This document shows positions 6,145 to 12,293 of a stretch of DNA of 43,851 bases, in pieces (within the stretch, counting starts at the first letter, position 1; every line of letters begins with the position of its first letter). The notes below the pieces were generated by a model. The model was not told the DNA's origin and searched no databases. It saw nothing but the letters and a program-made list of their open reading frames with translations. The translations under genes and the position numbers were made by a program. Source of the stretch: Melioribacter roseus (GTDB lineage: Bacteria; Bacteroidota; Ignavibacteria; Ignavibacteriales; Melioribacteraceae); assembly GCA_020722085.1 (NCBI GenBank), contig DYLN01000015.1:1-43851 (forward strand), given 5' to 3'.

Positions 6145-6390
6145 TTAGATTGCACTCTCTCCTCTTTCATTCGTTCTTATCTTTACTACGTAGCTGACTT
6201 CAATAACATATATTTTCCCATCGCCCGGATTTCCGGTGTGTGCTGTTCTTTGAATTGTATCAACAATCTCATCAACCAAATCATTACGAACAACAATTTC
6301 AATTTTTACTTTGAGATTTAGATGATGCAGCTTTTCATCAACACTTGCACCTTCTATTTTCCCTTTTGATTTTCCGAATCCTTTTATTGT
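6145..6390 (-). pseudogene. 5'-truncated P-II (GlnB/GlnK-like) regulator remnant
   Basis: Minus-strand open frame without an ATG start: TIKGFGKSKGKIEGASVDEKLHHLNLKVKIEIVVRNDLVDEIVDTIQRTAHTGNPGDGKIYVIEVSYVVKIRTNERGESAI*. Matches the P-II C-terminal two thirds (GFG..KG, KVKIEIVV, A.TG..GDGKI.V, R.RT.ERGE.A). Its 5' end overlaps the stop of the NlpC gene. Confidence 0.8.
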
Positions 6391-7127
6391 TCAAAATAAT
6401 TGTTAATTCTTCTGGCACCAACATAACGACTTTTGTAATAGGGATTATCAAGGTGTGAAACAGTTACTCCAAGAGAGCGGCTGGCATGAACAAACTTTCC
6501 TTCACCAAGATAAATGCCTACGTGTCCGGGAAAGCTTCTTTTTGTTGTATTGAAAAATACAAGATCACCGAATTGCAGTTTATCTTTACTATTGATTTTC
6601 TCGCCGGTTTTATATTGTTCTCTTGCAGTGCGCGGGAGTTCAAGTGAGAGCGAAGTTTCGAAAATTTCTTTCGTAAAAGCTGAGCAGTCGATTCCGTTGT
6701 TTGTACTGCCACCGTATTTATAAGGAGTATCAATAAATTTTATAACTTCGAATAGAACTTTTTCACGCGGGGTTAGAGCCACGTTAAAACTTTTCAGCTT
6801 TTCATAATTTTCTAAAAATTTTTTTGTATAAAGATTCTCATCTGCACCTGCCGGAGGAGGTTCATCAAATTCCGAAGGATTATCGGGAAGATCGTTATAA
6901 ACCGTTATTTCAGTATTGTTTGCATTTTCACTATTTGATGCGGTAGAATTGTCGGCATCGCTCGGAGGTTTATCGTTGTCGGAAGAAAACCTTACATTTT
7001 TAGAATTAGTTTTATGTTCTTCCTTAGGTTTGGAATATCTTTCGCTGTAAGAGGATGATGAGCATGCAGAAGCAGTTATAATTATTATAACTATGATAAA
7101 AAATAATATCGGCTTTACAAATTTCAC
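6384..7127 (-). CDS. NlpC/P60 family cell-wall endopeptidase, lipoprotein
   Basis: Lipobox-like TASACSS; YKYGGSTNNGIDCSAFTKEIF catalytic Cys, GHVGIYLGEGKFVHAS His. Confidence 0.94.
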   Translation of the reverse strand: MKFVKPILFFIIVIIIITASACSSSSYSERYSKPKEEHKTNSKNVRFSSDNDKPPSDADNSTASNSENANNTEITVYNDLPDNPSEFDEPPPAGADENLYTKKFLENYEKLKSFNVALTPREKVLFEVIKFIDTPYKYGGSTNNGIDCSAFTKEIFETSLSLELPRTAREQYKTGEKINSKDKLQFGDLVFFNTTKRSFPGHVGIYLGEGKFVHASRSLGVTVSHLDNPYYKSRYVGARRINNYFEQ

Positions 7128-7137
7128 AATTAATCAA

Positions 7138-7992
7138 TCAGCCTAAATAAGCACGCAAATTTTTGCTTCGCGAGGCATGCCGCAGTCTGCGAATTGCTTT
7201 CTCTTTAATTTGTCTAACTCTTTCGCGCGTAAGGTTAAATTTTTCTCCTATTTCTTCAAGAGTAAGCGAATGTTCTTTATTCAGTCCGAAATACAATTTT
7301 ACTACTTCTGCTTCGCGTTCGCTGAGCGTAGAGAGTGCACGTTCAATTTCACTTCTGAGAGAATCTGACATCAAAACATAATCCGGGGAGGGCTGGTCAG
7401 CATTTTCAAGAATATCGAGCAGCCTATTTTCTTCGCCCTGTGTAAACGGTGCATCCATAGAAATATGCCTGCCGGAAATTCTTAACGTGTCAGATATCTC
7501 GCTAATATCCATATCAAGTTCGGACGCGAGTTCATGAGCACTTGGCTCTCTTTCAAATTCCTGCTCAAGGTTGCTGTAGGCTCTGCCGATTTTATTAAGT
7601 GCACCGACTCTATTTAACGGCAGTCTCACAATTCTCGACTGTTCGGCAAGAGCCTGCAGAATCGACTGCCGGATCCACCAGACAGCATAAGAAATAAACT
7701 TAAACCCTCTTGTTTCATCGAACCTTTTTGCAGCCTTAATTAAACCAAGGTTCCCTTCGTTTATCAGATCGCCTAGGGACAAACCTTGATTTTGGTATTG
7801 TTTAGCAACACTTACAACAAAACGTAAATTAGCTTTAACAAGTTTCTCAAGAGCTCTTTGATCGTTTTTCTTAATTCGAACTGCAAGTTCAATCTCTTCA
7901 TCAGGTGAAAGAAGGTCCACCTTCCCTATTTCCTGCAGGTATTTATCTAAAGATTGGCTTTCTCTATTAGTATATTGTTTGGTGATTTTCAA
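7138..7992 (-). CDS. rpoD: RNA polymerase primary sigma factor (RpoD/SigA, short Bacteroidota-type)
   Basis: 284 aa; [57 protein letters not shown] and [30 protein letters not shown]. Confidence 0.96.
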
Positions 7993-8276
7993 GACACATC
8001 CTCCTTATTAATTCCTATGTTAATCGAATCTACAATACCAACAATTGATGCATCTACCGGTGCCATATCAACATCAAGAGGAATAACGGCTTCGCTAGCA
8101 GTAACGTAATAAATTATTTCTCCCGGACCGGCTCCAATTGTATCAAGAGCAATTATAGGATCTCCAAGCTTTTCACGTTCAGAATTTAGAGGCTGGACAA
8201 GCTGCATTTTATAACCGTTTAGGGCTTCGTATTTTCTTGTCGCCCAGATAGTGCCGATAATCTTACCGAGATACAT
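7989..8276 (-). CDS. EutN/CcmL family bacterial microcompartment vertex (BMC-P) protein
   Basis: 95 aa: [30 protein letters not shown]...[21 protein letters not shown]...[13 protein letters not shown]. Confidence 0.93.
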
Positions 8277-8575
8277 TATGATTCTACAATTTCTTTAAGT
8301 TTCTCTTTAACGCTTACGTCAAGTTTATCAACAATTGCCATAATAACAGCATCGACAGGTTTATTCTTTGTAAAGGTTGTTTGTCTTGCAGATGAGCCCT
8401 GAGCAACCAGCACAACTTCACCTACGCCGGCACCAACAGAGTCAACTGCAACAACGGTTGATTCTTTTGGCGTAAGGTCCAAATTAAGCTGCCGTACAAT
8501 TAAAAATTTTGCCCCCACTAAATTTTCATCTTTACGTGTAGACCAGACTGTTCCGATAACTCTGCCTAATATCAA
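8276..8575 (-). CDS. EutN/CcmL family bacterial microcompartment vertex (BMC-P) protein, second copy
   Basis: 99 aa: MILGRVIGTVWSTRKDENLVGAKFLIVRQL...AVDSVGAGVGEVVLVAQGSSAR...PVDAVIMAIVDKL. Confidence 0.93.
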   Translation of the reverse strand: MILGRVIGTVWSTRKDENLVGAKFLIVRQLNLDLTPKESTVVAVDSVGAGVGEVVLVAQGSSARQTTFTKNKPVDAVIMAIVDKLDVSVKEKLKEIVES

Positions 8576-8576
8576 A

Positions 8577-8969
8577 TTAGCCTCTTAACTCTTTTGATGA
8601 AATAATTTTTAACCCGGTTTTCTTATATCTATTAACTTGATTTGTTAAAATAGTCAGTTTGTTAATTTTTGCAACTGCACAAAGAATTGCATCGCGTACT
8701 GACGCAACTTTATTAAAAAATTCTGAAACGTTCAAACTGTACCGTGAATTTATCCCCAAAATTTTCAGCGACTTCATCAACGAATCGACAGCCTCTTTTT
8801 CATTTTTCTTCTCTGCAAAAAAATAAAGTTCGGAAGAATTTAAAACTGTAGTAAAACATACGCCTTTACTCATAGCAATTTCAAGATCAGCAGGCAAATT
8901 CTCTTTGCTCATTAGATAGTCAATTAAAATATCAGTATCGATTAAATATTCCTGTGTAGAACTCATCAA
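8577..8969 (-). CDS. PIN-domain (VapC-like) nuclease
   Basis: EYLIDTDILIDYL...LNSSELYFFA...SVRDAILCAVAKINKLTILTNQVNRYKK: PIN acidic residues D, E, D present; fourth position N rather than D. Confidence 0.8.
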   Translation of the reverse strand: MMSSTQEYLIDTDILIDYLMSKENLPADLEIAMSKGVCFTTVLNSSELYFFAEKKNEKEAVDSLMKSLKILGINSRYSLNVSEFFNKVASVRDAILCAVAKINKLTILTNQVNRYKKTGLKIISSKELRG

Positions 8970-9247
8970 AATTTAACTTTCTTATTAAAATCAGTATCAG
9001 ACAAACTCCCTTTACAGGTTAAAAATCCATAGACTACCTCGTCGGGTAAAGACTGCAGATTTTTAACCTTTTCAAAAAGTTTACGGTTTACTTTATCTTT
9101 TACCGGATTCGAAAATATATCTACCTTTATTCTGCTCGTTCCGCTTTTTCTTAGTTCATATAATTTTTCTTTCGGTATTTCAAAGCTGCCGTCATTCTTA
9201 ATTTCTGATTCGAAAGATAAAAGAAGTTTTGATTTTTCTTCATCCAT
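8966..9247 (-). CDS. Small protein upstream of PIN gene, possible VapB-like antitoxin
   Basis: 93 aa with N-terminal [24 protein letters not shown] (AbrB/VapB-like flavour) and overlapping start/stop with the PIN gene. Confidence 0.5.
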
Positions 9248-10403
9248 TTAAAAAACTATCTCCTTGCAAATTATTATTAATCTGGAAATAATGGGCTACT
9301 GTTTGTGCAACATCGGAAAAAGTTTTTCTAATTCCCAGATCGGTTCCAAGAACATGTTTGCGGTAATAAAGTAATGGAACATATTCCCTGCTATGGTCTG
9401 TGCTTTTTGATGTCGGGTCGTTTCCATGGTCAGCGGTTATGATCAGTCTGTCTGTCTCATCCATCGCATTAATAATTTCCGGCAGACTGCTGTCAAACTC
9501 CAGTAATGCTTTGTAAAAACCATCAGGGTCCAAACGATGACCATAATAAACATCAAAGTCAACGAGGTTAGCAAAGATGAAACTGTTATGCTCATTTTTC
9601 ATATTTGCAATTATTTTCTGAACGCCTTCTTGATTGCTTTTGGTTTTATCTTTCTTTCTGATTCCGCGGTAATTAAAAAGATCGTTAATCTTTCCGATTG
9701 CAATGGTTTGTATTCCCGCATCGTACAAATAATCTAAAATTGTTGGACCGAAAGGGTCTAATGAAAAATCTCTTCGGTTAGTTGTTCTGCTAAAATTACC
9801 GGGAGTGCCGATAAAAGGACGCGCTATAATTCTTCCCACAGCATCACTGCCGGTAAGAACTTTGTCGCGGGATATTTGACAAATTTCATAAAGACGTTCC
9901 AAAGGGATTACTTCTTCATGTGCTGCAATTTGAAAAACAGAATCGGCAGAAGTATAAACTATTGGATAAGCAGTTCTGATATGCTCTTCACCAAGTTCTT
10001 TTATAATTTCGGTTCCAGAAGCCGGTATGTTGCCGAGTATTCCTTTTACCCCCGTCTCCGCTAAAAACTTATCGATAATTCTCTGAGGAAAGCCTTCAGG
10101 ATACAGCGGAAATTCTTTATCAACTTTCAAACCGCCTAATTCCCAGTGTCCGGTAGTAGAATCTTTTCCGATAGATACTTCAGCCATCTTTCCAAAAGAT
10201 GCCATCGGATATTTTTGTGGGGGCATTCCTTTAATTGGACTAATGTTACCGAGTCCTAATTTTGCAAGATTAGGAAGGGTTAAACCTCCTAATTTTTCGG
10301 CCATGTTACCGAGTGTATTACTTCCCAAATCATTATACTTTTGTGCATCAGGCAGTTCACCGATACCAACCCCATCTAACACTATGACTATAAAATTTTT
10401 CAA
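9240..10403 (-). CDS. deoB: Phosphopentomutase
   Basis: [36 protein letters not shown]...[12 protein letters not shown]...[23 protein letters not shown], DeoB signatures. Confidence 0.96.
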
Positions 10404-10409
10404 CGGATT

Positions 10410-12293
10410 TTAATTTGTAGTTTTAACTGTGTTTCCACCTTTTTCTAGCGCCTTGTTTAATGCAAGTTCTGCATCATAAAGAATTTCGTGGACGTCCGTC
10501 TTTCCCTGTGTAGAACTGACCCCTATTGAAACAGTAAAGGTAGTCTGCTTGGAAACTACCGCAACGGGCTTGCGCGCAATTTTTACGCGTAATTTTTCTG
10601 CCCAAAGAAAAACATCTTTTGCAGAAGTATTAAAGAAATAAACGCCGAATACTCTTTCTTTTAGTCTGCCGAAAAGATTAAGCGGCGTCATTTCGTCTTT
10701 AATCATTTGTGCAACAGCTTTCAAAACTTTCGGGAAAGGATTGCCGTCAAAAAGCGAATCTTGCTCAAGAAATTCATCAATGCTGATTAAGGCAACAGCA
10801 CCCTGAGCATTAAACTCCTTTGCTTTGACCAGATCAACAGCTAATCTTTCAACAAAGGAATTGTAATTCAAAGCTTTGGTTTCTATATCTACCGAGAGGA
10901 GGCTTTTAAATACATTTATAGTCGAATAGGAATACAAAATAAACGCAAACATCTTCATGGAATTTTTAACAAAATTTACATCATCGTTGGAATAAGCGTT
11001 CTTTTTCAGACTTTCAAAACACAATACGCCATAATTCTTCTCGTCGTAAATCATAGGAATTGCAAGAAAAGAGCCGTCAAAACTTACATCTTCCGACTGT
11101 GCAAAACGAGGAAAATCAGAATTTGTTGTATCATCAATTTTCACAGGGATTCCGCTCAATATTGCTTTGCCAACAAGGGTTCTGCTTAGATCGACCTCAA
11201 GGTTTTCTCCAACATATTTAAGCGATGTACGGTTAACAATTTTTGTTGTCTTGAATTTTTGTTCGGATGGGAAATAATAAACAAAAGTAAAGGCGTCCCA
11301 CGGAATTAATCCGCTGACCGCACTTTCAAGAGAAGCAAAAAGTTCGGATTCAGTTTCAAATCTCCTGTCACAGCTTAAGACACTAAGCAAGGCTCTTAAT
11401 CTTTGTTCCGATTGAGTCTCGCTGAACTTCTCTTCGAACATTGAAATTATTATTGAAATTACTCGTACCACTCTCCCGAGAGAAAAAATTGACTCGATAC
11501 CGAAAGCATCGTTTACTTTCGAATCAAGTGCAAGTACACCGGCAAGGGATTTGCCGTAAAATAAAGGAACACCTACAAAACTTTTTATTCCTTGCGGCAC
11601 AGAATAATATCTAATAACATCTCTTTCTGCCAAAGGAGAAATATCGCTCAGTAATTCTGGTTCTTCTTTTTGGATTATCTTGCCTAAGATATCATCCTCA
11701 AGATCAAATTTTTTCTTTGTAATATGATTGGAGCTTGACACAAACCTTTCAAGTGTAAGACGCTTTTTAACTTTGTTATACCAAAAGAAAACTGCAGTGT
11801 GAGCCATAAAAGCATCTTTAACGATGTTGAGAATTTTTTCCAGGACAAAGCCAAATTGTTCATCCTGGTTTACATCATGTGGAAATTCTTCATGAACTAT
11901 TTTATCAAAATGCTCTTTGAAGTCCTCCGGTTTGAAAAAATCTTTCTTTGTGCGAGGTATTGTTTGATTAAAATTCTCCTGTGTTAATATCTCAATATTT
12001 TTGTTTGTCGAAACAATTTTAAATTCTTCACCTTCATTTGTATCATACTCTATTTCTTCGCCGGGAGTATTTTTTCCCGTTTCTTTGGGAAACTCTTCGA
12101 AGTTTTGCTGAGGTGGAGTTATTCCAACTCTTAAAGAATCACGCAAAAAAATTATGAACGCAACATAGATAACCAAAATAAGTGATGAAATAATACGCAG
12201 CATCAAATCATCGGTTAAGAATGGAATAGCAATCAACACCGGGATAAAAATAAATATAAAAAGTCTTTTCTTGTTTTTGTCGGTCATCCGCAA
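10410..12293 (-). CDS. Membrane-anchored double-GAF protein with degenerate GGDEF domain
   Basis: Two N-terminal TM helices; two GAF-like regions; C-terminal FTVSIGVSSTQ...YDAELALNKALEKGGNTV (GGDEF fold) but active motif reads RLKERVFGVYF. Confidence 0.78.
   Translation of the reverse strand: MRMTDKNKKRLFIFIFIPVLIAIPFLTDDLMLRIISSLILVIYVAFIIFLRDSLRVGITPPQQNFEEFPKETGKNTPGEEIEYDTNEGEEFKIVSTNKNIEILTQENFNQTIPRTKKDFFKPEDFKEHFDKIVHEEFPHDVNQDEQFGFVLEKILNIVKDAFMAHTAVFFWYNKVKKRLTLERFVSSSNHITKKKFDLEDDILGKIIQKEEPELLSDISPLAERDVIRYYSVPQGIKSFVGVPLFYGKSLAGVLALDSKVNDAFGIESIFSLGRVVRVISIIISMFEEKFSETQSEQRLRALLSVLSCDRRFETESELFASLESAVSGLIPWDAFTFVYYFPSEQKFKTTKIVNRTSLKYVGENLEVDLSRTLVGKAILSGIPVKIDDTTNSDFPRFAQSEDVSFDGSFLAIPMIYDEKNYGVLCFESLKKNAYSNDDVNFVKNSMKMFAFILYSYSTINVFKSLLSVDIETKALNYNSFVERLAVDLVKAKEFNAQGAVALISIDEFLEQDSLFDGNPFPKVLKAVAQMIKDEMTPLNLFGRLKERVFGVYFFNTSAKDVFLWAEKLRVKIARKPVAVVSKQTTFTVSIGVSSTQGKTDVHEILYDAELALNKALEKGGNTVKTTN

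What the first reader, a model, noticed from the sequence alone, without database searches (positions are those of the whole stretch)
7138..8575. Two microcompartment vertex (BMC-P) genes translationally coupled to the primary sigma factor gene
Seen directly: two tandem EutN/CcmL-family ORFs abut each other (TAATG overlap at 8274-8278), and the second overlaps the rpoD start by ATGA (7989-7992). No hexameric BMC-H shell gene or signature enzyme is in the window. Established: BMC-P proteins normally cap microcompartment vertices and are encoded in shell/enzyme operons. Inference: either shell-vertex dosage is tied to housekeeping sigma expression, or these pentamers have a shell-independent role. 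The two copies are clearly divergent ([15 protein letters not shown] vs MILGRVIGTVWSTRK), so heteromeric assembly is possible.
Basis: partly seen in the sequence, partly recalled or inferred. Interest (0 to 1): 0.75.

Follow-up and report, generated by a model that had tools for sequence, protein, structure and literature searches.

The report
Scattered DNA-sugar organelle genes beside rpoD
Two genes for the corner pieces of a protein-shelled bacterial organelle sit in the operon of the main sigma factor throughout the Ignavibacteria that have this organelle; the rest of the organelle is scattered over other housekeeping operons, and its enzymes point to a job nobody had assigned, breaking down the deoxyribose sugar of DNA.

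Summary
In detail: two divergent BMC-P (PF03319) genes lie directly upstream of rpoD. One detail is wrong: the second junction is TTGA, not ATGA, and that overlap is not conserved (5 of 46 genomes). The gene order is conserved: rpoD directly follows the pair in 46/46 relatives where the pair was found there, in 77/77 testable of 80 named Ignavibacteria loci, and in 17 of 18 DeoB- or GGDEF-linked pairs from the rest of the class. The genome is not shell-less: it also holds two BMC-H, one BMC-T and a third BMC-P in other housekeeping operons, matching the 'FRAG' BMCs of Sutter 2021, whose function was unknown. The pair co-occurs with a DeoC aldolase bearing an N-terminal extension (43/43 versus 0/9) and an acetylating aldehyde dehydrogenase bearing a C-terminal encapsulation peptide (45/46 versus 0/9). 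All three change together in 6/6 independent contrasts; in shell-less relatives the orthologous deoC keeps its operon but has lost the conserved extension. Best reading: vertex proteins of a dispersed, probably constitutive deoxyribose-phosphate metabolosome. A shell-independent role is disfavoured. Regulatory coupling to sigma is neither shown nor excluded; the linkage may be passive. Assembly and cargo loading are untested.

The parts
8276..8575 (-). BMC-P1, shell vertex protein (EutN/CcmL family)
   Evidence: PF03319 113 bits, positions 1-83 of 83; closest solved chain 5v74, E 3.7e-25 (from memory the Haliangium ochraceum BMC-P)
7989..8276 (-). BMC-P2, second divergent shell vertex protein
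   Evidence: PF03319 94 bits; closest solved chain 4i7a, E 3e-14; 62-81% identical across the relatives aligned
7138..7992 (-). rpoD, short primary-type sigma-70 factor (284 aa)
   Evidence: sigma70 r1.2/r2/r3/r4; directly downstream of P2 wherever the pair is found in the order
7989..7992 (-). TTGA overlap: P2 stop / rpoD start; not conserved
   Evidence: read directly; 5 of 46 genomes overlap
8274..8278 (-). TAATG overlap: P1 stop / P2 start
   Evidence: read directly; overlaps in 18 of 46 genomes
9240..10403 (-). deoB phosphopentomutase, supplies deoxyribose-5-phosphate; retained also in shell-less relatives
   Evidence: NCBIfam TIGR01696 490 bits against cutoff 341
8577..8969 (-). PIN-domain protein (toxin-like) between deoB and P1
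   Evidence: PF01850 42.9 bits; present in 38 of 80 loci, so not an essential part
8966..9247 (-). 93-aa partner ORF of the PIN gene (antitoxin-like position)
   Evidence: no Pfam or NCBIfam family
10410..12293 (-). GAF-GGDEF protein, conserved neighbour in the same run of genes
6384..7127 (-). NlpC/P60 protein, conserved downstream neighbour of rpoD
   Evidence: PF00877 109.6 bits

Best explanation
P1 and P2 are two of the three pentameric vertex proteins of a complete bacterial microcompartment whose genes are dispersed over several housekeeping operons (a FRAG-type BMC). Shown by sequence: a full shell set in the genome, conserved operon positions, and co-loss of shell and cargo. [quoted passage not shown] The organelle would thus salvage DNA sugar while containing acetaldehyde. 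Also inferred: placing vertex genes between deoB and rpoD gives low, steady, growth-linked expression instead of substrate induction.
For: Shell set in the genome. Conserved order: 46/46, 77/77 testable, class-wide. Other parts in fixed housekeeping operons: ruvX-H1-H2-ybbR-tmk, ymdB-folD-deoC-trmH, P3 next to dprA, BMC-T next to a PduS/RnfC-like protein. DeoC with extension 43/43 in pair-positive versus 0/9 in pair-negative genomes; AldDh 45/46 versus 0/9. At least 6 independent changes; both traits follow the pair in 6/6 contrasts, p 0.031. In six shell-less relatives with the rpoD locus intact (plus G042, G053 and G298), the syntenic deoC lacks the conserved Cys/GWERN...GAxRI block. Encapsulation-peptide pattern: DeoC 52/55, shuffled 10%; AldDh C-terminus 44/44, shuffled 6%. 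Enzyme identities pass curated cutoffs: deoC 283 vs 117, acetylating acetaldehyde dehydrogenase 645 vs 620, deoB 490 vs 341. A compact SPU locus in a class member (L331) carries RpiB, extended DeoC, BMC-P, AldDh, BMC-H and two more BMC-P matching P2 and P3.
Against: No expression, proteomic or microscopy data. In the window species the first DeoC helix has low 18-residue hydrophobic moment (0.03-0.09); only the pattern test and class-wide homologs look like a classical peptide. No PduL, and no other phosphotransacylase, alcohol dehydrogenase or RpiB was searched for. Two class members break the rule: G288 has extended DeoC and the AldDh but no BMC-P hit; G069 has both, but its only BMC-P genes are in a PVM-like cluster. 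G008 keeps a diverged BMC-H pair and a short EP-like DeoC N-terminus without BMC-P. G296 has the pair without rpoD downstream. The phylogenetic test rests on only 6 contrasts and a quick tree. deoB-rpoD adjacency persists without the shell genes, so the linkage may be passive.
Confidence: 0.78

Rival explanations
1. Specific regulatory coupling: being upstream of rpoD is selected because sigma and vertex-protein levels must track each other, so shell closure follows growth rate.
For: Order kept across a class and dozens of genera; genes nearly contiguous; no terminator-like site between P1 and rpoD.
Against: Other organelle parts are in unrelated housekeeping operons. At least six lineages lost P1/P2 with rpoD unharmed. 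Translational overlap is not conserved. deoB-rpoD-NlpC order is conserved even without P1/P2, so local order is simply stable.
Confidence: 0.15
2. The pentamers have a shell-independent role (for example a sigma or RNA-polymerase accessory factor, or a metabolite sensor).
For: They lie beside rpoD and away from the other shell genes.
Against: Full shell set in the genome; the pair is lost together with the cargo traits; pair-positive genomes carry BMC-H and BMC-T; rpoD persists without the pair.
Confidence: 0.05
3. FRAG shell with another main substrate: for example the class II (fuculose-type) aldolase near BMC-P3 is the real aldehyde source and DeoC is secondary.
For: A class II aldolase gene lies about 3.8 kb from BMC-P3 in a conserved dprA-rarA-ddl neighbourhood; such aldolases define PVM BMCs (PMC8217296).
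Against: That aldolase shows no evident terminal peptide by eye; its distribution was not tested. The DeoC extension tracks the shell, and the AldDh fits the acetaldehyde family over its cutoff.
Confidence: 0.1
4. Passive relic: the shell no longer assembles and the genes are only carried along.
For: Repeated losses in the order; G008 looks partly decayed.
Against: Strong purifying selection on P1/P2 and long-term retention of matching shell and cargo features.
Confidence: 0.04

Closest known systems
FRAG BMCs (FRAG1-7; Sutter et al. 2021, PMC8217296)
   Same: Shell genes in up to six genomic places, BMC-P triplet, reported from Ignavibacteriae, few linked enzymes.
   Different: Function was stated as unknown and the positions as lacking defined locus organisation; here the positions are fixed housekeeping operons, one being rpoD's, and a cargo set is proposed. 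The FRAG subtype was not assigned (supplements not readable here).
SPU (sugar phosphate utilization) BMCs (Axen 2014 PMC4207490; Sutter 2021)
   Same: DeoC-type aldolase plus acetaldehyde-type AldDh, BMC-P triplet, DNA-sugar catabolism proposed.
   Different: SPU genes form one locus with RpiB and often PduL; here they are dispersed, PduL is absent and RpiB was not tested.
HO BMC of Haliangium ochraceum
   Same: BMC-P triplet; some genomes have an unlinked DeoC with EP-like N-terminal extension (PMC8217296); P1's closest solved chain is 5v74.
   Different: HO has a main locus with its own AldDh; no rpoD linkage is reported.
PVM and PVM-like BMCs
   Same: A few relatives (e.g. G117, G210) carry a separate cluster with class II aldolase, AldDh and PduS-like protein.
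   Different: Clustered, different aldolase, and those genomes lack the extended DeoC.

Membership tests
BMC-P (EutN/CcmL, PF03319) | Full-length match to the family profile above the curated cutoff | tested here: met
   113 and 94 bits against 25, profile 1-83 of 83
BMC-P (EutN/CcmL, PF03319) | Forms pentamers that cap shell vertices | not testable with these tools
   no multimer prediction or experiment; homologs of known pentamers by sequence
FRAG BMC | Shell genes spread over several genomic places | tested here: met
   BMC-P1/P2 on C278, P3 on C82, two BMC-H on C137, BMC-T on C123; separate operon contexts in single-contig genomes G009 and G049 too
FRAG BMC | BMC-P triplet | tested here: met
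   three PF03319 genes in this genome; three in most relatives
FRAG BMC | Placement in the FRAG clades of the published shell-protein trees | not tested
SPU BMC | DeoC-type aldolase (PF01791) as candidate cargo | tested here: met
   TIGR00126 283 bits; extension tracks the shell
SPU BMC | Acetaldehyde-type AldDh | tested here: met
   TIGR02518 645 bits against 620; conserved C-terminal peptide
SPU BMC | RpiB-type isomerase (PF02502) with the shell | not tested
   seen only in the compact locus L331; not searched in the window genome
SPU BMC | Genes in one consolidated locus | tested here: not met
   components on separate contigs and operons; hence not filed as SPU, only 'works like'
Canonical metabolosome core | PduL-type phosphotransacylase (PF06130) | tested here: not met
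   absent in G000; found in only 5 of 58 genomes, beside a second BMC gene cluster judging by coordinates

The most novel reading that the evidence does not exclude
A whole bacterial class runs a housekeeping organelle without an organelle locus: vertex supply is transcribed with the primary sigma factor, facet supply with ruvX/tmk and cargo with folD, so that organelle number scales with growth; the FRAG 'dark' BMC would thereby be solved as a constitutive DNA-sugar organelle with expression hard-wired to the core machinery.
Probability: 0.2. Interest if true: 0.8.

Novelty: new variant of a known kind. Interest (0 to 1): 0.62.

Why it matters
FRAG BMCs were catalogued in 2021 as organelles without locus organisation or known function. 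The data here give a specific, testable assignment (deoxyribose-phosphate breakdown by DeoC and an acetylating aldehyde dehydrogenase) and show that the 'fragments' occupy fixed housekeeping operons, one of them the rpoD operon. It also illustrates how to find the cargo of a dispersed organelle: by terminal targeting extensions that appear and vanish with the shell genes.

Tried and rejected
Shell-less or moonlighting pentamers: rejected once BMC-H, BMC-T and the third BMC-P were found. Conserved translational coupling: rejected by junction statistics. PduL as the phosphotransacylase: absent. First DeoC helix as strongly amphipathic by 18-residue moment in this species: not supported; the hydrophobic-pattern test that I then used was chosen after seeing the sequences. 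A first script for helix moments over orthologs failed. Promoter-like sites were no more frequent than in shuffles. Literature searches found no paper linking FRAG BMCs to DeoC or BMC-P genes to rpoD; supplementary files could not be read. No structure prediction was run, since a single-chain model could not test pentamers.

Full report
OBSERVATION. On the minus strand the window holds GAF-GGDEF (10410-12293), deoB (9240-10403), a 93-aa ORF and a PIN-domain gene (8577-9247), BMC-P1 (8276-8575), BMC-P2 (7989-8276), rpoD (7138-7992) and an NlpC/P60 gene (6384-7127), each within about 10 nt of or overlapping the next. The P1/P2 junction is TAATG as reported; the P2/rpoD junction is TTGA, not ATGA. 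The window upstream is the ribosomal/RNA-polymerase gene cluster (nusG, rpoB, rpoC, tuf, rpsK, rpoA, rplQ), closed after rplQ by the longest terminator-like stem on that strand, at 13035-13005. No terminator-like site lies between P1 and rpoD.

THE GENOME HAS A SHELL. A search of the 3.64 Mb assembly (99.9% complete) found three PF03319 genes and four strong PF00936 domains: two BMC-H (one with a long C-terminal extension) and one BMC-T with two domains. They lie on different contigs from the window. The BMC-T gene is next to a PduS/RnfC-like protein. So the absence of shell genes in the window says nothing about function.

CONSERVATION OF THE ORDER. Of 58 genomes in the first comparison, 46 had the pair at the rpoD locus (one near-duplicate, G051, not fetched), and in all 46 rpoD follows P2 (gap -4 to +40 nt, 7-20 nt in 38). 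A scan of GTDB contigs kept 80 loci, titled as Ignavibacteria, Melioribacteraceae, Bacteroidetes/Chlorobiota or 'bacterium' MAGs plus Stygiobacter electus; rpoD directly follows in 77, and the other three end at a contig edge (the script counted 74 and three more were read from its output, where a long open frame hid the rpoD start). The 80 were the best of 254 matches, so they are biased to close relatives. In 20 regions from other families of the class, 17 have GGDEF-(deoB)-P1-P2-rpoD, one (G296) has the pair without rpoD downstream, and two (G069, G117) are unrelated PVM-like clusters. In seven pair-negative relatives the deoB-rpoD order persists without P1/P2. Translational overlap is therefore not the conserved feature; contiguity is.

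OTHER PARTS ARE ALSO IN FIXED HOUSEKEEPING OPERONS. In the members examined of two families, BMC-H1-H2 lies between ruvX and ybbR-tmk-ctpA, deoC in ymdB-folD-deoC-trmH, BMC-P3 beside dprA in a neighbourhood with rarA, ddl and a class II aldolase, and BMC-T-PduS beside an RsbU-like gene, an M64 peptidase gene and pyrE (BMC-T context seen in one family only). Gene names here are from sequence similarity and my own reading of the proteins, not from curated annotation.

CARGO. DeoC of this genome is 291 aa; the curated deoC model begins at residue 72, so about 70 residues are extra. An acetylating acetaldehyde dehydrogenase (645 bits against a cutoff of 620) lies on the same contig as BMC-P3 and ends in a variable linker followed by a conserved helix (GxGISExEIxKIIxEF). 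Both termini fit the hydrophobic pattern of encapsulation peptides far more often than shuffles (52/55 versus 10%; 44/44 versus 6%).

CO-LOSS TEST. Among order-level genomes, every pair-positive genome with a DeoC hit has the extended form (43/43; none found in G026, G030, G040), while none of nine pair-negative genomes (G008, G018, G034, G035, G039, G042, G046, G053, G057) does; the AldDh is in 45/46 versus 0/9. For G042 and G053 absence of the pair was inferred from lack of matching BMC-P genes, not from an intact rpoD locus; G039 has only a distant DeoC. On a five-gene tree the pair changes at least six times, and DeoC extension and AldDh follow in 6/6 independent contrasts (p = 0.031; AldDh 5 or 6 of 6 depending on the pairing). 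Most directly, in G008, G018, G034, G035, G046 and G057 (also G042, G053 and G298) deoC is still in ymdB-folD-deoC-trmH but the conserved block is gone, leaving an unconserved N-terminus of at most about 70 residues. Outside the order the pattern holds in most sampled genomes. Exceptions: G288 (cargo features without a BMC-P hit), G069 (cargo features with only a PVM-like BMC-P cluster), G145, G162 and G279 (no DeoC hit), G210 and G117 (other BMC type, no extension).

A COMPACT RELATIVE. In G135 one locus encodes RpiB with a terminal helix, extended DeoC, BMC-P, AldDh (52% identical), BMC-H and two further BMC-P whose best matches among our three are P2 and P3. This is the SPU arrangement (PMC4207490, PMC8217296) and links the scattered parts functionally.

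WHAT IS KNOWN. Sutter et al. 2021 (PMC8217296) defined FRAG BMCs (dispersed genes, BMC-P triplet, Ignavibacteriae) as enigmatic and expected an environmental correlate to reveal the function; sigma factors are not mentioned in the main text. Axen et al. 2014 (PMC4207490) noted seven BMC-P genes over five loci in Melioribacter and suggested, for other phyla, that unlinked genes may be constitutively expressed. I found no paper assigning DeoC to FRAG or reporting the rpoD linkage, within the open library searched.

VERDICT. P1/P2 are, with high probability, vertex proteins of a dispersed metabolosome; the DNA-sugar function is a strong prediction; a regulatory purpose for the rpoD linkage is open.

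Noticed in passing
window 8577-9247: PIN-domain gene plus 93-aa partner (toxin-antitoxin-like) inserted between deoB and P1; PIN found in 38 of 80 loci, faster evolving than P1/P2.
   Followed up: partly
G000 C80:11136-11993 (L099): Second RpoD-like sigma factor, 75% identical, without BMC neighbours; missing in many relatives whose single copy is the BMC-linked one.
   Followed up: partly
window 7138-7992 and relatives: rpoD starts with TTG or GTG in 41 of 46 genomes, an unusual start for a primary sigma factor.
   Followed up: no
L331 6077-12391 (G135 C4): Compact SPU-type locus in the same class, with an actin-like/HSP70-fold gene and a weak BMC-domain protein between BMC-H and the last BMC-P genes.
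   Followed up: partly
L172 5949-7013 (G008): Diverged BMC-H pair retained at its usual ruvX-ybbR site in a genome without BMC-P, extended DeoC or the AldDh; a possible snapshot of organelle loss.
   Followed up: partly
L286-L310 DeoC N-termini: Between peptide and aldolase, DeoC extensions outside the order carry a conserved Cys motif (CxDGxCxDxxCVxHNK), perhaps metal-binding or redox-active.
   Followed up: no
L010 9934-10710: Second BMC-H has a C-terminal extension of about 180 residues (charged/low-complexity, then a short conserved-looking end).
   Followed up: no
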